Below, one piece after another: positions 27,835-38,559 of a stretch of DNA of 64,000 bases. Position numbers and translations under genes: made by a program. The notes under the pieces were generated by a model that saw nothing but the letters and a program-made list of their open reading frames with translations, ran no database searches and had not been told where the DNA came from. The stretch comes from Janthinobacterium sp. Marseille (GTDB lineage: Bacteria; Pseudomonadota; Gammaproteobacteria; Burkholderiales; Burkholderiaceae_D), in assembly GCF_000013625.1 (NCBI RefSeq), contig NC_009659.1, forward strand, positions 620,001-684,000, in the 5' to 3' direction. Within the stretch, counting starts at the first letter, position 1; each line of letters starts with the position of its first letter.

Positions 27835-28734
27835 CTAACCCAAAGCAGCAACCACAATGCGCGTAGCAGCTGCGATGACATCTTCGCGTGCTGCTGCATC
27901 CTTGTCATTTTGCGTAAAGTAAATGGCGGCGACGATGGCGGTCCCTTTTGCGGTCCACAGGATGCCGGCATCATTGGTGGTGCCGTAAGAACCGGTGCCA
28001 GTTTTATCGCCGACTATCCAGCCCCTCGGCACACCCGCCAGCATGCGTTTGCTGCCGGTGGTATTGCCTTTCAGCCAGCTCACTAACTGTTCGCGCTGCG
28101 GATTTGCCAGTGCATTGCCCAGTGCAATTTTTTCCAGGCTGCGTTCCACCGCGGCCGGTGTGGATGTGTCGCGTTCATCACCGGGTATCGCCGAATTTAA
28201 TTCCGGTTCCCAGCGATCAAGACGGAATACATCATCACCGATGGAGCGCATGTAAGCTGTCACCGCGGCAGGTCCACCCAACTCGGTCATCAGGAAATTC
28301 GCTGCGGCGTTATCGCTGTATTGCAAGGTGGCCGCGCATAGCTCGGCTATCGTCATGCCATCCGCCAAATGTTTTTGCGTGACAGGTGCGTAACCGGATT
28401 TCTCGACTTGATCCTTCTTATAGCGAATGCGCTTTTGCAGCAGTTGTGCCTCGCTTGCACTTCTTTGCAGGATCGCAGCCGCGACCATCACCTTGAAGGT
28501 ACTGCATAGCGGGAAGCGTTCTTCCGCGCGATATTCAACGCGATTGTCGTTCGCCATGTTCAATGCGGAAACGCCCAGCCTGCCACGGGCTGCGCTTTCA
28601 ATTCGCTTCAGTTCTTCCTGCGCAGTGCGGGAAGAAATATTTGAATTACCCGCAGCGACGGGGAGCGTAAAACCTGCAACAGGGGAGGCGATGGCCGCGA
28701 GCAGGAGCGAACGGCGGCGTGAAGAAGCGGGCAT
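27835..28734 (-). CDS. Class A serine beta-lactamase
   Basis: The 299-residue protein has a complete class A active site: Ser78-Thr-Phe-Lys81 (CSTFK), Ser140-Asp-Asn (SDN), Glu176 and Asn180 of the omega loop (EPELN), and Lys244-Thr-Gly. After KTG comes TGSYGTTND, reminiscent of CTX-M-type enzymes (KTGSGDYGTTND). It would hydrolyse penicillins and possibly cephalosporins in the periplasm. The leader SRRRSLLLAAIASPVAG has a twin-arginine-like start, so Tat export is likely. AGGA lies eight bases before the ATG. It lies 23 bases downstream of a cupin gene on the same strand. No ampR-type regulator is adjacent. Chromosomal rather than acquired, by context. Confidence 0.92.
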   Translation of the reverse strand: MPASSRRRSLLLAAIASPVAGFTLPVAAGNSNISSRTAQEELKRIESAARGRLGVSALNMANDNRVEYRAEERFPLCSTFKVMVAAAILQRSASEAQLLQKRIRYKKDQVEKSGYAPVTQKHLADGMTIAELCAATLQYSDNAAANFLMTELGGPAAVTAYMRSIGDDVFRLDRWEPELNSAIPGDERDTSTPAAVERSLEKIALGNALANPQREQLVSWLKGNTTGSKRMLAGVPRGWIVGDKTGTGSYGTTNDAGILWTAKGTAIVAAIYFTQNDKDAAAREDVIAAATRIVVAALG

Positions 28735-29190: not shown

Positions 29191-30417
29191 GGCGGTTTCA
29201 ACCGGTCAATGCAACACACTAAAGGCTATGCAGATAGCGGGAGTGTGCCATGGTTCGCCGAACAAGGATCATTTATACCGATAGCCAAAAGGCATTGATG
29301 TGGGATCGCTGGAAGAAGGGAGAATCTCTCCAGCAGATTGCCCAGTTATTCGATCGAAACCATTCCTCTGTCCAGCGCATTCTGGCTGAGAGTGGGGGAA
29401 TCCGACCACTGCCACGCATTCGATCTAGTACGGCGTTGACGCTGGCCGAACGGGAAGAAATCTCTCGCGCCATTGTCGCTGGTCATTCAATGCGTGTCAT
29501 TGCCAGAAATCTGGAACGATCACCATCGACAATCAGTCGGGAGATCAAACGCAACGGCGGCATTGAAGCCTACCGTGCTGCAGAAGCCGATGCAGCCACC
29601 TGGAATCGCGCTCATCGGCCCAAAGCCTGTAAGCTTTTAATGAACCGACAGCTAGCCAGCGCCGTCGCGGACAAACTTCGCCAGCAATGGTCACCACAAC
29701 AAGTGGCCGGATGGCTTAAATACAGTCATCCAGGTAATGAGGAATTGCATGTGTCTCACGAAACCATCTACAAGACCTTGTTCATCCAAACACGCGGTGC
29801 CTTGAAGAAGGAGCTCACTGAGCATTTGAGGCGGGTACGTGTCATGCGTCGTTCACGGCATCACACGCAGAAGACAGACAATCACGGCCAGATCAGCGAC
29901 GCCGTATCAATCAGCGAAAGACCAGCTGGTGTGGAAGATCGTGCGGTGCCAGGCCATTGGGAAGGGGATTTGCTATTTGGAAGTGGCAACAGCCAGATAG
30001 CGACATTAGTGGAGCGCCATACGCGCTATGTGATGTTGGTAAAAATCGCTCGCAAGGATACGCAGACGGTAATTGATGCGCTGATCAAGCATGCGGGCAA
30101 GCTACCGCAGGAATTATATAAATCGCTGACCTGGGATCGAGGCAAAGAATTGGCCGACCACAAGCGCTTCACGCTGGCGACCGATATCCAGGTCTACTTC
30201 TGCGATCCACGAAGTCCGTGGCAACGTGGATCAAACGAAAATACCAATGGCTTGCTGCGTCAGTACTTCCCGAAAGGAATGGACATCTCGGGCTACTCGC
30301 AGGCGCAATTGAATGCCGTCGCCAGACGACTCAATGAACGACCGAGAAAGACTTTAAACTATGAAACACCGGCTCAACGGTTTTATCAATCTGTTGCATT
30401 GACCGGTTGAAACCGCC
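29191..30417 (+). mobile_element. IS30-family insertion sequence, intact
   Basis: The element is 1227 bp, bounded by perfect 26-bp inverted repeats at 29191-29216 and 30392-30417 (beginning GGCGGTTTCAACCGGTC). A TG dinucleotide at 29189-29190 and 30418-30419 is a two-base target duplication, the size IS30 makes. One full-length transposase gene fills the element, and the right repeat overlaps its 3' end. No passenger genes. The perfect repeats and intact gene suggest a recent insertion. Confidence 0.92.
29250..30410 (+). CDS. IS30-family transposase
   Basis: The 386-residue protein has an N-terminal helix-turn-helix (KGESLQQIAQLFDRNHSSVQ, about 19-38), a second HTH around IVAGHSMRVIARNLERSPST, and a DDE catalytic core: first Asp in GHWEGDLLFG, second in LTWDRGKELADH, and Glu in RGSNENTNGLLRQYFP. 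This is the standard IS30 layout. It binds the terminal repeats and catalyses transposition through a joined-ends circle. All catalytic residues are present, so the element is probably active. Confidence 0.95.
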   Translation: MVRRTRIIYTDSQKALMWDRWKKGESLQQIAQLFDRNHSSVQRILAESGGIRPLPRIRSSTALTLAEREEISRAIVAGHSMRVIARNLERSPSTISREIKRNGGIEAYRAAEADAATWNRAHRPKACKLLMNRQLASAVADKLRQQWSPQQVAGWLKYSHPGNEELHVSHETIYKTLFIQTRGALKKELTEHLRRVRVMRRSRHHTQKTDNHGQISDAVSISERPAGVEDRAVPGHWEGDLLFGSGNSQIATLVERHTRYVMLVKIARKDTQTVIDALIKHAGKLPQELYKSLTWDRGKELADHKRFTLATDIQVYFCDPRSPWQRGSNENTNGLLRQYFPKGMDISGYSQAQLNAVARRLNERPRKTLNYETPAQRFYQSVALTG

Positions 30418-33132: not shown

Positions 33133-33588
33133 TTATGAGCCGAAGTAGCCTATACCCTTGGCAGCCATAGCGGCACACAGGATCATCGCTCCCAGCAACA
33201 TCAGTTCGGCATGGATAATGCCACGCAGCTTGCGGTTCTGCGCATCTGTCAGTTCAGGCACTACGCCTTGCTTCAGCGATTTATTCCACTTGAGGAAAGT
33301 CATGGTCGGATGGATGGAGATCAGACCGACAATGATAAAGAGCACCATCTTGATAATGAAAGGCGCGCTATGCATGTAATAGTCCGCGCCTTTTTCAAAA
33401 TACATCACACGCAAACCACCGATGATCAGAATCAGGCCGGCGGCGACGCCGTAGATGGCGTCATAGCGTTGGATTTTCTTTGCGGTTGCGAGTGTTAGCG
33501 GTTGCTTCAGCAATAGCATCTCGAAGGCCAGCGTTAGCATGATGGCCAGGAAGGCTATGTGATGAAAAAAAGCGGCGATAGCATTCAA
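33133..33588 (-). CDS. DUF2214-family membrane protein
   Basis: This is a 151-residue membrane protein from a TTG at 33588, chosen because AGGAG lies six bases upstream and the family begins with a short NAIAAFFHHIAFLAIML-type segment. A GTG at 33612 would add eight residues and overlap the DGQHR stop by a base or two. Four hydrophobic helices are visible, with GVAAGLILIIGGLRVMYFEK and a PFIIKMVLFIIVGLISIHP segment. Function is unknown. It probably belonged to the glnS operon before the methylase module arrived. Confidence 0.75.
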   Translation of the reverse strand: MNAIAAFFHHIAFLAIMLTLAFEMLLLKQPLTLATAKKIQRYDAIYGVAAGLILIIGGLRVMYFEKGADYYMHSAPFIIKMVLFIIVGLISIHPTMTFLKWNKSLKQGVVPELTDAQNRKLRGIIHAELMLLGAMILCAAMAAKGIGYFGS

Positions 33589-33608
33589 CTTGTGCTCCTG
33601 AGAAAAGA

Positions 33609-35870
33609 TCACTTTGCGTAGCTTGCTAATTGCTCGGTAAGTTTTGCCTCATATCCCTCCAATTCGGCAAGCTGTTCCAAAGAAAGTGAGACTGCAGATG
33701 ACGGGTGAGAAACGATATTGCGTTGTTCATTTAGCGAAACCATCCATTTTGTTTTCTTTTCTTTATTTCCGCTGCGCTCAAACCCTAAAATGGGTTCGAA
33801 CAAATCCCAATGATCTAGCGCTATCCGTCTGTAATCAATTAGTTCAAAATAATGTTGGGGAGCGCCACGTTTTCTGTTGTCTTTTTCGTACCGACCCATG
33901 ACTTCGAGACGTACTACTTGAGGGACGCCTTCCACGAACCACTCACTTTCATTCACTCCGAACTCTTGTTTTAATTCTTCCAGAACGAAATCTTTGAGAG
34001 TGACTTCGATGCGATCAATGATTTCCTTAGCTCTTAAATTTGTTTGAGCTTTTTCGAGGTTCAAAAATTCGTCAAGCCCACTAGGATTGAATTCCGGAAA
34101 CTGATTTCTAATCGCTTGCTGGCACCGTCTTGTTCTTGCTGTTTGTCCTTGACTGCCTCGAAGATCCCTAAAACGTTTTCGATCTTCCGTATTTAACGTT
34201 CCTAGGTACTCACCTAGTACTTTTGCATAGGGAGTCAATTCTTTCCATAGCGCTTCGTTATTCTTTCTTATCAGAGTCAATCCTGAATCCTCAAGATGTG
34301 AAAATACACTTCTGAGCACATTTAGGCAGGTAGTAACTCCATCGTTCATGGCAAGTCCTCCACCTTCAGCAGCACCTAAAGTCCACCAAGAATTCGCGGA
34401 GTCACTAACTACTCCAAACCAATGTTTCAAAATAAAGACGGTGCGTAATAGAGTTGTCTCGTTATCACCTGCCCATAATGGGCCATATTCGGTAACATGA
34501 CCTTTTGATTCTGCTGCGATATGGAACCCTCTTTTTTCAATTGCTGAAAAAATACTGGCCAAGCTAATGCAACGGATATTGTCCTTAATGGAATCCGCCG
34601 TTTGAATGCGATTGTGGAGTGGAGAATCTCTATCTAGATCCAATACTTGTATCGCCTTAGATACGATTGCTCTTGCGCGGGTAGACGGGTCTTCTGCATC
34701 CCAATGCAGTTCTGAGTACAACTCTTGAAGTAAGGAAGACTTAACGCTTTTCTGTTTCGCATTAATGTCTACGAATAATTGTGCTTGCTTACTAGCTTGT
34801 AGACCTTCGAAGGCCAATACAGAGAGATGGCTGGTAGCCGCAAGTTCGTGCCCTGAATAGGAAAATAACCGATGTTGTCCATCGATAATCCAAGCCGATT
34901 TGTAGGCGGGTCTGATTTCTAGCCAGCCTAATGTCCCACTTATATCCTCTTCGGCTTTTGTGTTTTCTTGTCTTATTTTTTCAAATCGCAATCTAGATTT
35001 ATCTAGATTGATAACAATGTTTGTCGGGAAAACGCCATTGTTCGAAATATATTCTTTGATATTGGACAATCTTGTTTTATTCATCATCCTTTGATATGTA
35101 TTTACATCTGACGCTTTTCCCTTGGTTCTATGCGACACATAAGCAATTTTTAATAAGTATTCCGGGGAAATTGGAAATGCGTAGCAAACCGAGTTCCCCA
35201 TTTTTGTTCTAACTGCGGGAACACGGATCTGTAAGCCGGGTATGGTTTTTCCAGGGAGTACGTCAGCAAACAACTGATATTTCGCTGCGGGGCCAAGATG
35301 GCCAGCTAGTTTCTCGTAATAGTCCAGATCTTTTTCATCAAAAAGAATTACGTTTGAGTCTTTTGCTAGATTTTTTTCTTGTTCAGGGATGCTGATCCCA
35401 GATAAAAAAAGAATCGCAACCGCTACCCTTTTTTTCTCGTCTTTGGGCAGAGCAGACTGAGTATTTCTCCCTAGTCTTTCCCTGTCAAACGATAGCCGTT
35501 CAATAAGTTTGCGGAGAGAATCCCGTTTTAACGGATCTTCGGGAGTAAGGCTCGTAATGCCAATGGTTACTTCTTCGCCTACAGCAATAACATCAAATAC
35601 TTCTTCTGCAGATTTTTCGGACAAAGTGTCATTAGTTATATATTCAAATTTCAATTTATGAAGTAGGCACCATATGCGATCACGAAGCATATGCTTTTCT
35701 GATTTAGGTTTTTCTACCCGAATTGTGGTTTTATTTTTTCGAGAAAATATCCAGCCTTCTTGAGCATATGCGTCGAAGTCTACCGGCTTAATTGAACGAT
35801 GAACTATCCCTCTATTTTTTGTTCTTGCAAGTGCTTGCAATGCATCCGATTTTTGTAAGTTAGAAAGCAT
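33609..35870 (-). CDS. DGQHR-domain protein with C-terminal HEPN-like RX4H motif
   Basis: This is a 753-residue soluble protein. Residues 63-108 (MLRDRIWCLLHKLKFEYIT, then EEVFDVIAVGEEVTIGIT) look like a PD-(D/E)XK-type fold in which the Asp is kept but the E-x-K strand reads GIT. The central DGQHR motif is at 330-334 (IIDGQHRLFSYSG), followed by LFVDINAKQKSVK (365-377), both typical of DndB/DGQHR proteins linked to DNA modification. The C-terminus (about 670-735) is helical, with NEQRNIVSHP: Arg717, Asn718 and His722 form the RX4H motif of HEPN ribonucleases. AAGGGGG precedes the ATG by four bases. It follows the methylase gene by 12 bases and is AT-rich with codon use unlike its neighbours. 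The function is inferred only: a modification-linked defence effector is likely. Confidence 0.78.
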   Translation of the reverse strand: MLSNLQKSDALQALARTKNRGIVHRSIKPVDFDAYAQEGWIFSRKNKTTIRVEKPKSEKHMLRDRIWCLLHKLKFEYITNDTLSEKSAEEVFDVIAVGEEVTIGITSLTPEDPLKRDSLRKLIERLSFDRERLGRNTQSALPKDEKKRVAVAILFLSGISIPEQEKNLAKDSNVILFDEKDLDYYEKLAGHLGPAAKYQLFADVLPGKTIPGLQIRVPAVRTKMGNSVCYAFPISPEYLLKIAYVSHRTKGKASDVNTYQRMMNKTRLSNIKEYISNNGVFPTNIVINLDKSRLRFEKIRQENTKAEEDISGTLGWLEIRPAYKSAWIIDGQHRLFSYSGHELAATSHLSVLAFEGLQASKQAQLFVDINAKQKSVKSSLLQELYSELHWDAEDPSTRARAIVSKAIQVLDLDRDSPLHNRIQTADSIKDNIRCISLASIFSAIEKRGFHIAAESKGHVTEYGPLWAGDNETTLLRTVFILKHWFGVVSDSANSWWTLGAAEGGGLAMNDGVTTCLNVLRSVFSHLEDSGLTLIRKNNEALWKELTPYAKVLGEYLGTLNTEDRKRFRDLRGSQGQTARTRRCQQAIRNQFPEFNPSGLDEFLNLEKAQTNLRAKEIIDRIEVTLKDFVLEELKQEFGVNESEWFVEGVPQVVRLEVMGRYEKDNRKRGAPQHYFELIDYRRIALDHWDLFEPILGFERSGNKEKKTKWMVSLNEQRNIVSHPSSAVSLSLEQLAELEGYEAKLTEQLASYAK

Positions 35871-35882
35871 GCTACCCCCTTA

Positions 35883-36713
35883 TTATTTTGAGATGAATAT
35901 TTTTTCGCTTATGACGCGACGTTTATTTGATGAGGCTGCGATGATGGAAAATCTATCGATTTTTACAGCTTTAAAATCTGTATAGAGATCATTTACTGAA
36001 GGATGATCTGCGTTGCTTACAATTACATGTACCCCTGAGTCCATTAATTTTTTGGCTAATTCAGAGAGACGTATTTGATCCGCCCACAAGAAAATTTTGT
36101 CGTTATATTTAATGAATCCATTGGTCCCATGGGCGACGGTATATGGGGGGTCGAAGTAAACAAAATCGCCGGCCTTCGCTCGCGAAACAGATGTCGCGAA
36201 GTCGTCGCATCGTAAGGTCACATTTTTTAGAGCTGAGCTAATCTGAAGAATGCGTTCTTCAGGGCATGGGTCGATATGTGTCTTACGTCCATATGGAACA
36301 TTAAAATCCCCTTTTAAATTAACGCGATGTATCCCGTTAAAAGAGAGGTTACATAGATACATTAATCTTGCTGCGCTCTCAACTGGGTCTGCTGGGCGTA
36401 GTTCTCTTATTCGGTAATAGTCATCTTCGCTATTCTTAAAGGTCTTAAGTTTCTTTATTAATGACCGAGGCTGTTCTTTTACTTGGGAGTAGAGATTTAT
36501 TAGCTCGAAGTTTTTGTCGCTTAGAGATGCTTTATCTGGATTCAAAGCAAAAAAAAGAGCACCCCCACCAAAAAAAGGTTCGTAGTAGCGTCCGTAGGTA
36601 TTAGGTATGTATGGGGTTATATGTTTCAGTAGAGCTCTTTTTCCACCCGGCCATTTAATTAAGGGAAGGAGTTTAGTTGGCTCTTCGGCTTGCCCTTTAT
36701 TGTTATTGATCAT
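35883..36713 (-). CDS. D12-class DNA adenine N6-methyltransferase (Dam-like)
   Basis: The product is 276 residues from the ATG at 36713. Motifs are [13 protein letters not shown] (17-29, AdoMet-binding motif X), [13 protein letters not shown] (motif I, 45-57), [13 protein letters not shown], and catalytic DPPY (188-191, motif IV) in [14 protein letters not shown]. The D12 class includes Dam and DpnM, so GATC is the likely but unproved target. The start codon overlaps the glnS stop (ATGA), with a GGGGGA ribosome-binding site, and the DGQHR gene starts 12 bases downstream. In a 60-base stretch (36481-36540) I counted 38% G+C, against 55% in a glnS stretch (37081-37140), a sign of horizontal transfer. 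Confidence 0.9.
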
Positions 36714-38458
36714 TTCCCCCAACTATCCTTCAAAGTAACCACCCGATTAAACACAGGCCTCCCAGCCGTGCTATCGACGCGATCCGCAACAAAGTAACCG
36801 TGACGTTCAAACTGCAACTTCTCATCCGGCTGTACTGAAGCCACGCCAGGTTCCACAAACGCTGTCACCACTTCTTTCGAATCAGGATTCAACGCCAGTT
36901 TGAAATCCTTGCCGCCGGCATCCGGATGCGGGTCGGTGAAGAGGCGGTCGTACAGGCGTACTTCGGCTTCCAGTGCATGTGCGGCGCTGACCCAGTGCAG
37001 GTTGCCCTTGACTTTGTAGTTGGCTGAACCTTCAGTGCCGGATTTGCTGTCGGGGAAGTAGGTGCAATGAACGGCGATGATGTTGCCATCTGCATCTTTG
37101 TCCGCGCCCACGCATTCAACGACATAGCCATAACGCAGGCGTGCCTTGTTGCCCGGGAAGAGGCGGAAGTAGCCTTTGCTTGGCACTTCCATGAAGTCTT
37201 CCTGTTCTATCCACAGTTCCTTGCTGATCGGGAAGGTGCGGTTGCCGCGTTCCGGATGATGCGGATGGACCGGTGCCGAGCATTCGACGGTTTCGCCTTC
37301 CGGGAAGTTGTCGATGATGAGTTTGAGCGGACGCAGTACCGCGATGGCGCGTGGCGCTTTTTCATCGAGGTCTTCGCGCAGCGCACCTTCGAGCACGCTG
37401 TAGTCTATCCAGCCGTCGGATTTGGTGACGCCTGTGCGTTCGCACATCAGCTGGATCGCTTCCGGCGTGTAACCGCGACGGCGCATGCCGACGATGGTAG
37501 GCATGCGCGGATCGTCCCAGCCTTCGACGATGTTTTCTTCTACCAGCTGGCGCAGCTTGCGTTTGCTGGTGACGATGTAGGTCAGGTTGAGCCGCGAGAA
37601 TTCGTATTGATGCGGCAGCGGCTTGGCAAAGAAGCCGCCTTCGGCCAGGCGTTCTAGGACCCAGTCGTAGAACGGACGGTGATCCTGGAATTCGAGTGTG
37701 CAGACTGAATGTGTGATGTTTTCAATCGCATCTTCAATCGGATGCGCATAGTCATACATCGGATAGACACACCATTTGTCGCCAGTGCGGTGGTGATGTG
37801 CGTGACGGATACGATAGATGGCCGGGTCGCGCAGGTTCATGTTCGGTGATGCCATATCGATTTTGGCACGCAGGATGTGTGCGCCATCTTCGAATTCGCC
37901 GGCCTTCATTCGGCGGAACAGGTCCAGCGATTCGGCGGCAGGGCGATCACGGAAAGGCGAGTTCTTGCCTGGCTCACCGAAGTTGCCGCGGTTCTTTGCC
38001 ATGTCTTCCGCTGATTGGCTGTCGACATAGGCGTGGCCCTGGTTGATCAGGTATTCGGCCATTTCATATAACTGGTCGAAGTAGTCGCTGGCGAAGTAGA
38101 GGTGTTCCTTGTCGCCTTCTTTCCAGTCAAAGCCCAGCCATTTGACGCTGTCTATGATGGTGTCTACGTATTCCTGTTCTTCCTTGGTCGGATTGGTGTC
38201 GTCGAAGCGCAGGTTGCAGCGGCCGGCGTAGTCGCGCGCGAGGCCGAAGTTGAGGCAGATCGATTTGGCATGGCCGATGTGCAGGTAACCATTGGGTTCC
38301 GGCGGGAAGCGCGTGATGACCGTTGGCAGCGGCTGGCCGTCCTTGCCCACACGTTTTTCGTGTTTGCCGGCGGCGAGATCGGCTTCGATGATGCCGCGCA
38401 GGAAGTTGGAAGGGGCCGGGGTCGGGTTGGTGCTGCCGTTTTTTGAATCGTTGCTCAT
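36710..38458 (-). CDS. glnS: Glutaminyl-tRNA synthetase
   Basis: The product is 582 residues from the ATG at 38458 (an upstream start would add 13 poorly conserved residues). It charges tRNA-Gln with glutamine. Class I signatures are HIGH at 60-63 ([15 protein letters not shown]), and the KMSKS-type loop as [11 protein letters not shown]. The catalytic half is followed by the anticodon-binding beta-barrels ([35 protein letters not shown]). Its stop codon overlaps the start of the methylase gene, so the foreign-looking module is translationally coupled to this essential gene. Confidence 0.97.
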
Positions 38459-38559
38459 GGATACGTGTGCTGGGCTGGGCGCAGGTTTAGTGCGCAATAT
38501 TAAGAAGTAAAGGGCATTTTACCCGAGGCGGGCGGGTGTTGAGCCATAAATGGCTAAGC

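What the first reader, a model, noticed from the sequence alone, without database searches (positions are those of the whole stretch)
33609..36713. Candidate defence module: D12 adenine methylase plus DGQHR protein with HEPN-like C-terminus
Seen: a Dam-like methylase (DPPY) and, 12 bases later on the same strand, a 753-aa protein with DGQHR (330-334) and RNIVSH (717-722). The region is AT-rich (38% G+C in one counted 60-base stretch, 55% in glnS). Known: DGQHR/DndB proteins are linked with DNA modification systems; HEPN RX4-6H proteins are RNases, often in toxin and anti-phage systems. Inferred: methylation marks self DNA, while the DGQHR protein senses lack of it or foreign DNA and triggers RNA cleavage. 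No restriction endonuclease is encoded, so this is not an ordinary restriction-modification pair.
Basis: partly seen in the sequence, partly recalled or inferred. Interest (0 to 1): 0.85.

Follow-up and report, generated by a model that had tools for sequence, protein, structure and literature searches.

The report
Methylase paired with sensor-linked RNA cutter
Next to a glutamine-tRNA-synthetase gene, at a spot where sister species carry other anti-virus genes, this bacterium has a DNA-marking enzyme paired with a three-part protein that probably cuts RNA when the cell's DNA marks look wrong, most likely an uncharacterised anti-virus system.

Summary
Confirmed: a DpnM-like D12 adenine methylase (35883-36713, -) and, 12 bases on, a 753-aa protein with DGQHR (330-334) and RNIVSH (717-722), AT-rich (41% against 54% G+C). 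The large protein belongs to a widespread family with three domains: PD-(D/E)xK fold, ParB/DGQHR domain, Swt1-like HEPN. In 273 aligned members (261 after removing near-copies) HEPN R/H never varies; the nuclease site is degenerate in 56 of 269. Of 39 genome loci, 34 had readable neighbours: 33 have a co-directional adjacent adenine methylase (29 DpnM-like D12, 2 longer D12, 2 MT-A70), 1 a radical-SAM-like protein. The pair sits between glnS and a DUF2214 gene; 6 of 11 congeners read there carry another recognisable defence cargo, so the site looks like a defence hotspot. Best reading: a two-gene, methylation-gated defence module whose indispensable effector is the RNase. RNA cleavage, methylation specificity and phage protection are inferred. 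ParB-HEPN fusions were listed in 2013; my searches found no description of this three-domain protein or its methylase pairing.

The parts
35883..36713 (-). D12-class N6-adenine DNA methyltransferase, DpnM-like, 276 aa from the ATG at 36713
   Evidence: TIGR00571 230 bits, Pfam MethyltransfD12 186 bits; best solved relative DpnM (2dpm) 207 bits against 121 for Dam chains; DPPY present
36710..36713 (-). ATGA overlap of the glnS stop codon with the methylase start codon; translational coupling to glnS is inferred
   Evidence: sequence
33609..35870 (-). 753-aa sensor-effector protein: PD-(D/E)xK fold, ParB/DGQHR domain, helical linker, Swt1-like HEPN
35256..35870 (-). N-terminal PD-(D/E)xK-fold domain (residues 1-205), catalytic letters lost in this copy
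35547..35684 (-). Stretch holding the four positions of the nuclease signature: R63 (E in kin), D93 (kept), T106 (E in kin), L108 (K in kin)
34395..35219 (-). DGQHR / ParB-Srx-like domain (about residues 218-492)
34869..34883 (-). DGQHR motif, residues 330-334
   Evidence: identical in 273 of 273 aligned members
33612..34058 (-). Swt1-like HEPN domain (about residues 605-753)
   Evidence: HEPN_Swt1 E 4.3e-4 for the isolated domain, 21 bits, below Pfam's cut-off of 27.5; 14 of 32 domains match at E<=0.05; PADLOC PDC-M34B 4e-7
33705..33722 (-). RNIVSH, residues 717-722, the HEPN Rx4H motif
   Evidence: R and H kept in 273 of 273, 261 of 261 after removing near-copies, 32 of 32 isolated domains
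36710..38497 (-). glnS, housekeeping flank of the hotspot
33133..33588 (-). DUF2214 membrane protein gene, the other flank; its start is probably the TTG at 33588, 20 bases after the stop of the large gene
   Evidence: Pfam DUF2214 160 bits; congener starts

Best explanation
The two genes form one anti-phage module. The methylase, probably made together with GlnS, keeps a short adenine-containing site in the host DNA methylated (probably GATC-like, inferred from DpnM kinship). The large protein is a combined sensor, switch and effector. Its nuclease-fold domain, without a complete active site in this copy, binds or scans DNA; the ParB/DGQHR domain is a nucleotide-driven switch; and when unmethylated DNA (or loss of the methylase) is met, the HEPN domain is released and cuts RNA, stopping the cell and the phage. 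In kin with an intact E-D-ExK set the same protein probably also cuts the foreign DNA. Shown here: domain make-up, motif conservation, linkage, methylase swapping, hotspot location. Inferred: methylation specificity, sensing of unmethylated DNA, nucleotide binding, RNA cutting, protection.
For: Linkage: 39 genome loci; 5 are cut by contig ends or partial; of 34 readable, 29 have a DpnM-like D12 gene next to it (in L011 only a contig-end piece of it is held), 2 a longer D12 and 2 an MT-A70 methylase, 1 a radical-SAM-like protein. Each of the 33 methylases is on the same strand as the large gene. The 29 D12 gaps, with mechanically chosen starts, run -98 to +49 bases except L020 (+329) and L012 (+573, where the large gene is split in two and its first piece overlaps the methylase). 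A phmmer search with the window methylase gave at most one hit per locus over 525 kb. Methylase and large-protein distances correlate (28 loci plus the window, Mantel r 0.72, p 0.0005). Partner or gene order changes at least 11 times on a quick tree. HEPN R/H and DGQHR invariant in 273 of 273 while the nuclease set is degenerate in 56 of 269 (53 of 258 after removing near-copies), with at least 27 changes on a tree built without that domain. The 9 of 33 aligned loci scored degenerate (7 of them lacking the E or K of ExK) have an adjacent D12 methylase in 9 of 9. Hotspot. Models.
Against: No activity was measured. HEPN is below Pfam's cut-off in the window copy (21 against 27.5 bits), and 18 of 32 domains gave no HEPN_Swt1 match at 0.05; structural support for HEPN is weak. 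L014, L042 and two plasmid loci (L043, L044) show a radical-SAM-like protein and no methylase next door, so a SAM-dependent DNA methylase is not universal. The L017 methylase lacks a DPPY-like motif. The 273 sequences are the best 120 of each of two searches plus 33 loci, include the window protein and near-copies, and are not a random sample. The number of nuclease-site changes depends on the criterion (26 with a stricter one). The family was found in only 1 of 399 genomes of the order, the window's own (E<=1e-40).
Confidence: 0.5

Rival explanations
1. Compact restriction-modification system: the large protein is a restriction enzyme whose PD-(D/E)xK domain cuts unmethylated DNA, and the HEPN domain is only a structural or backup part. 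The window copy would be a decayed version.
Against: The nuclease set is lost repeatedly while HEPN R/H is kept in 273 of 273; copies scored degenerate keep the methylase (9 of 9 loci, plus the window). The window gene has a full-length open frame.
Confidence: 0.17
2. Guard or toxin-antitoxin logic: the methylase itself (as a protein or through its product) restrains the HEPN toxin; phages that block or dilute methylation release it, as PrrC is released when its restriction system is neutralised.
For: Tight linkage, same strand, small or overlapping gaps and correlated divergence; the PrrC model for HEPN proteins beside R-M genes is argued in PMC3710099 section 10.
Against: Swapping to other methylases (2 MT-A70, 2 long D12) argues for the product rather than for protein contact. 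Not separable from the best explanation by sequence alone.
Confidence: 0.17
3. Modification-dependent (type IV-like) sensor: the large protein reads modified phage DNA, as GmrSD, BrxU and SspE do with the related DUF262 domain, and the methylase only shields the host.
For: DGQHR is related to the GmrS DUF262/DGQQR domain (PMC4619093 passages; PMC10952713 passages).
Against: GmrSD and BrxU are not described in those passages as needing a linked adenine methylase; here one is present in 33 of 34 readable loci.
Confidence: 0.1
4. Regulatory pair without defence role: like DndB, the DGQHR protein only tunes expression of the methylase.
For: DndB is described as a claimed negative transcriptional regulator (PMC10853773 passages).
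Against: HEPN R/H invariance, a nuclease-fold domain, the defence hotspot; TIGR03233 DndB score 21 against a cut-off of 328.
Confidence: 0.06

Closest known systems
Swt1-like HEPN fused to ParB (Saro_3948), listed in the 2013 HEPN survey, PMC3710099 Table 1 (passages)
   Same: ParB-like plus Swt1-like HEPN in one protein. A homologue on Novosphingobium aromaticivorans plasmid pNL1 was fetched here (L043); that it is the gene tagged Saro_3948 is inferred, since old locus tags are not shown.
   Different: In the passages and the one section I read, the fusion is a table entry: no nuclease domain for it, no methylase pairing. The pNL1 locus has a DGQHR - radical SAM - ATP-binding-protein cluster beside it, and no methylase is annotated there.
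MAE_28990-type HEPN genes in operon with a ParB nuclease and DNA methylase genes (PMC3710099 Table 1, passages)
   Same: HEPN, ParB-like and methylase parts together, as separate genes
   Different: Here HEPN and ParB/DGQHR are one protein, with a PD-(D/E)xK-fold domain added
PD-T4-2 (DUF262 and HEPN; PMC9519451 and PMC10952713, passages)
   Same: ParB/Srx-like domain with a HEPN domain; deletion of PD-T4-2 raised T4 plaquing in its native strain; a PD-T4-2_A-like gene with a HEPN neighbour sits at the same hotspot in congener G011
   Different: DUF262 rather than DGQHR; separate proteins (from PADLOC's naming and recall); no methylase mentioned in the passages read
SspE / GmrSD / BrxU (PMC10952713 passages)
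   Same: DGQQR ParB/Srx-type NTPase domain coupled to a nuclease that responds to DNA modification
   Different: HNH (DUF1524) effector; triggered by modification, not by its absence
DndB and DpdB
   Same: DGQHR domain; DpdB model 89.8 bits
   Different: Far below both curated cut-offs (328 and 300 bits); models of about 350 residues, so without the two outer domains
DpnII type II R-M (DpnM methylase)
   Same: Closest solved relative of the methylase
   Different: The partner here is a DGQHR/HEPN protein; no DpnII-type endonuclease match was seen for it

Membership tests
D12 / Dam-family adenine methyltransferase | Curated profile above cut-off and DPPY motif | tested here: met
   TIGR00571 230 against 114.9; Pfam D12 186 against 22; DPPY present
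D12 / Dam-family adenine methyltransferase | Methylates adenine in GATC | not testable with these tools
   needs methylome sequencing or a DpnI/DpnII digest
DGQHR domain family (TIGR03187) | Score above cut-off | tested here: met
   144.1 against 58.85
DndB (Dnd systems) | TIGR03233 score above cut-off | tested here: not met
   21 against 328; the broader Pfam PF14072 'DndB' model is met, 53.4 against 29.1
DndB (Dnd systems) | dndC and dndE in the genome | tested here: inconclusive
   no match to TIGR03183 or PF08870 in the genome; the DndE control rang nowhere and no control passed the DndC cut-off, so absence is not firmly shown
DpdB (7-deazaguanine DNA systems) | NF041060 score above cut-off | tested here: not met
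   89.8 against 300
HEPN RNase (Swt1-like) | Rx4-6H motif, conserved | tested here: met
   R717/H722 in 273 of 273
HEPN RNase (Swt1-like) | Profile match above Pfam cut-off | tested here: inconclusive
   window 21 bits against 27.5; 14 of 32 domains match at E<=0.05, best 1.9e-7
HEPN RNase (Swt1-like) | HEPN helical fold | tested here: inconclusive
PD-(D/E)xK nuclease | Fold | tested here: met
PD-(D/E)xK nuclease | Catalytic E-D-ExK in the window copy | tested here: not met
   R63, D93, T106, L108
Type II restriction-modification | Adjacent DNA methylase | tested here: met
Type II restriction-modification | Partner protein with an active endonuclease site | tested here: not met
   catalytic letters lost in this copy; cutting itself not testable here
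GmrSD / BrxU / SspE | DUF1524 HNH domain | tested here: not met
   no such Pfam match up to E 1
PD-T4-2 | DUF262 (GmrSD_N) protein | tested here: not met
   no GmrSD_N or PADLOC PD-T4-2 match for the large protein up to E 1

The most novel reading that the evidence does not exclude
A class of restriction-modification in which the restricted molecule is RNA: a DNA mark made by an exchangeable modification enzyme (D12, MT-A70 or, in other branches, a B12-type radical-SAM-like protein) gates a HEPN RNase through a ParB-like nucleotide switch, and the DNA-cutting domain of the sensor is dispensable and repeatedly lost, becoming a pure reader. The radical-SAM branch would then point to a mark whose chemistry has not, to my knowledge, been described for such systems.
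Probability: 0.33. Interest if true: 0.85.

Novelty: new variant of a known kind. Interest (0 to 1): 0.64.

Why it matters
If true, self/non-self DNA marking would be wired straight to RNA destruction in a two-gene unit, unlike classical restriction-modification. The family is widespread: two searches gave 2427 and 1655 matches at E<=0.001 (overlapping, from capped candidate lists, and possibly including other DGQHR proteins), and the record titles span Pseudomonadota, Bacteroidota, Bacillota, Acidobacteriota, Chloroflexota and a Thorarchaeota assembly (phyla from recall). Where the sources name members, they mostly say 'DNA sulfur modification protein DndB' or 'DGQHR domain-containing protein', which hides the nuclease-fold and HEPN domains. 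Natural copies with and without the nuclease site give ready-made tests of which activity protects. The glnS-DUF2214 site adds a small defence hotspot (integrases were not searched for) that can be mined in the genus.

Tried and rejected
DndB membership: rejected by the curated model, score 21 against 328; no DndC match in the genome. DpdB membership: rejected, 90 against 300. Sequence search of the PDB with the whole large protein: no match up to E 1. Profile searches of the PDB with the C-terminal and N-terminal alignments: nothing significant; the only N-terminal match was an archaeal Holliday-junction resolvase with the D-ECK letters aligned, E 1. Foldseek alone gave no match at E<=0.001 for either model; the fold assignments rest on VIA-align, where one domain can fill the list, so solved HEPN proteins that are not listed are not excluded. 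Phage origin: no relative covering 80% of the protein in 50,697 phage records (4 partial matches), one in a pattern scan of IMG/VR (L042). Plasmids: 5 of 41 records with a match cover at least 80%; of these, two were opened as L043 and L044, and the DSM 12444 copy of pNL1 as L099. A survey of the order, meant to add linkage cases, found the family at E<=1e-40 only in the window's own genome, 1 of 399. Papers: searches listed no description of the three-domain protein with a Dam-type partner; PMC10853773 (outline, abstract, passages), PMC12839542, PMC8649781, PMC3506569, PMC4619093, PMC10952713 and PMC9519451 (passages) and PMC3710099 (passages and section 10) were opened; other listed papers were seen as listings only. 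Closed papers and preprints are not covered. In the tallies, subfamilies 1 and 2 were split at 40% identity to the window protein; nuclease 'degenerate' means any of E/Q, D, E/D/Q, K/R missing; under a D-[ED]xK rule 58 of 272 are degenerate.

The 5 contig-edge or partial loci L018, L019, L032, L038, L040 are outside the linkage tally. A1 used 24 of 120, A2 79 of 240 and A3 62 of 240 listed homologues; A4 used the window plus 31 of the 33 loci prepared; A5 used 24 of those 33, left without most degenerate copies. Of the congener cargo, 12 ORFs from 10 of the 11 loci were scanned; L086 was not scanned, nor the smaller ORFs of L081, L085, L087 and L089.
Full report
WHAT IS THERE. On the minus strand, glnS (36710-38497) ends in TGA; the ATG of a D12 methylase overlaps it (ATGA at 36710-36713), and 12 bases after the methylase stop a 753-aa gene begins. 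The stretch has 41% G+C against 54% for the window; no 3.1-kb stretch of the window sampled is more AT-rich. The methylase is Dam-family (TIGR00571 230 bits), nearest to DpnM among solved structures (207 bits; Dam chains 121).

THE MISSED DOMAIN AND ITS LOSS. In most of the homologues aligned the N-terminal domain carries E...D...ExK (for example QIDVVGIDDEIALAIECKS). In the window protein the four positions are R63, D93, T106 and L108. Of 273 aligned members (240 listed by two searches, the window protein among them, plus 33 loci, some of them near-copies of listed proteins), DGQHR and HEPN R/H are intact in 273; the nuclease set is intact in 213, degenerate in 56 and gapped in 4. After removing near-copies the figures are 205, 53 and 3 of 261, with R/H in 261. 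On a tree built without that domain the nuclease state changes at least 27 times. In a 79-row alignment the invariant positions of the C-terminal domain are G648, W709, N714, R717 and H722. The natural inference is that the RNase-like site is indispensable and the DNase-like site is optional.

LINKAGE AND SWAPPING. One scan of GTDB genomes gave 39 loci. Five are cut by contig ends or partial (L018, L019, L032, L038, L040). Of the other 34, 29 have a DpnM-like D12 methylase beside the large gene on the same strand (14 upstream, 15 downstream; in L011 a contig-end piece), L013 and L033 a longer D12 enzyme, L029 and L036 an MT-A70 enzyme, and L014 a radical-SAM-like protein. Nine of the 33 aligned loci are scored degenerate at the nuclease site, and 9 of 9 keep a D12 methylase; seven of these (L004-L007, L015, L027, L035) lack the E or K of ExK. 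Distances of the two proteins correlate over 29 pairs (28 loci and the window; Mantel r 0.72; 0.71 and 0.60 within the two subfamilies). Partner or order changes at least 11 times on a 40-row tree (quick tree, 7 open forks). One viral contig (L042) has a radical-SAM-like protein 59% identical to that of L014, and plasmid loci L043 and L044 have a DGQHR - radical SAM - ATP-binding-protein cluster; the radical-SAM protein of L043 is 42% identical to that of L014 (that of L044 was not compared). Their Radical_SAM and B12-binding matches are below Pfam's cut-offs and their NCBIfam matches weak; the plasmid records call theirs 'radical SAM protein'. These loci count against a methylase-only reading, and they open the novel case.

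DEFENCE HOTSPOT. Of 12 congeners searched with the DUF2214 protein, 11 gave a match and were read between glnS and the DUF2214 gene. The ORFs in the interval differ from genome to genome. Six carry recognisable defence genes: TIR-STAND (G001), Cap15 (G004), KwaB (G005), AriA/AriB of PARIS (G006), AbiU (G007, in a 10.7-kb interval that also holds other genes), PD-T4-2_A-like with HEPN (G011). Three are suggestive: Schlafen AlbA_2 (G009, where the DUF2214 gene is in fragments), SIR2_2 below its cut-off (G010), DUF6119 (G012; its defence link is recalled, PADLOC gave nothing). Two show none (G002 only a weak TPR match; G008 was not scanned). Nine of the eleven intervals have G+C 0.36-0.42; G007 is 0.55 and G008 0.58. 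The cargo begins right after the glnS stop and ends before the DUF2214 start, as far as the printed ends show. I did not search for integrases.

MECHANISM. Best supported: a two-gene, methylation-gated defence module with an RNase effector. The steps 'mark', 'sense', 'switch' and 'cut RNA' are inferences from the families; none was measured. Rivals (compact R-M, methylase as antitoxin or guard, modification-dependent sensing, pure regulation) are set out in their sections.

PRIOR ART. The 2013 HEPN survey (PMC3710099; passages and section 10 read) lists Swt1-like HEPN fused to ParB (Saro_3948) and MAE_28990 HEPN genes in operon with ParB and methylase genes, and proposes PrrC-like backup killing. 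My searches showed no account of the three-domain protein, its lost nuclease site, or the methylase swapping. The kind - HEPN effector coupled to a modification system - is known; this architecture and pairing look like a new variant.

Noticed in passing
window 33588-36713 and L081-L091: The interval between glnS and DUF2214 looks like a defence hotspot in this genus: 6 of 11 congeners read carry another recognisable defence cargo (TIR-STAND, Cap15, KwaB, PARIS, AbiU, PD-T4-2-like with HEPN).
   Followed up: yes
L014:4582-5751, L042:7291-8526, L043:9738-11351, L044:9503-11134: Radical-SAM-like proteins (L014/L042 59%, L014/L043 42% identity) stand beside or near the three-domain protein where no methylase was seen; possibly an alternative modification enzyme.
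   Followed up: partly
L098:8158-11833 (G000:C1 near 3528157-3531832): A second DGQHR protein (392 aa) in the same genome lies beside a long D12 methylase (402 aa) and a 375-aa protein with, by eye, a possible PD-(D/E)xK motif; an OLD-like gene (by eye) is near. Perhaps a split version of the same theme.
   Followed up: partly
L013:10377-13836: Next to the three-domain protein a long D12 methylase is followed by another 748-aa protein with a DndB-domain match.
   Followed up: no
window 29250-30410: IS30-like transposase gene 3.2 kb from the pair, by eye from the ORF translation.
   Followed up: no
window 27835-28734: Class A beta-lactamase-like gene close to a tRNA-Pro, by eye from motifs in the ORF translation.
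   Followed up: no
G000:C1:3825855-3827504: Two D12 methylase matches in tandem, apparently in one 638-aa open frame.
   Followed up: no
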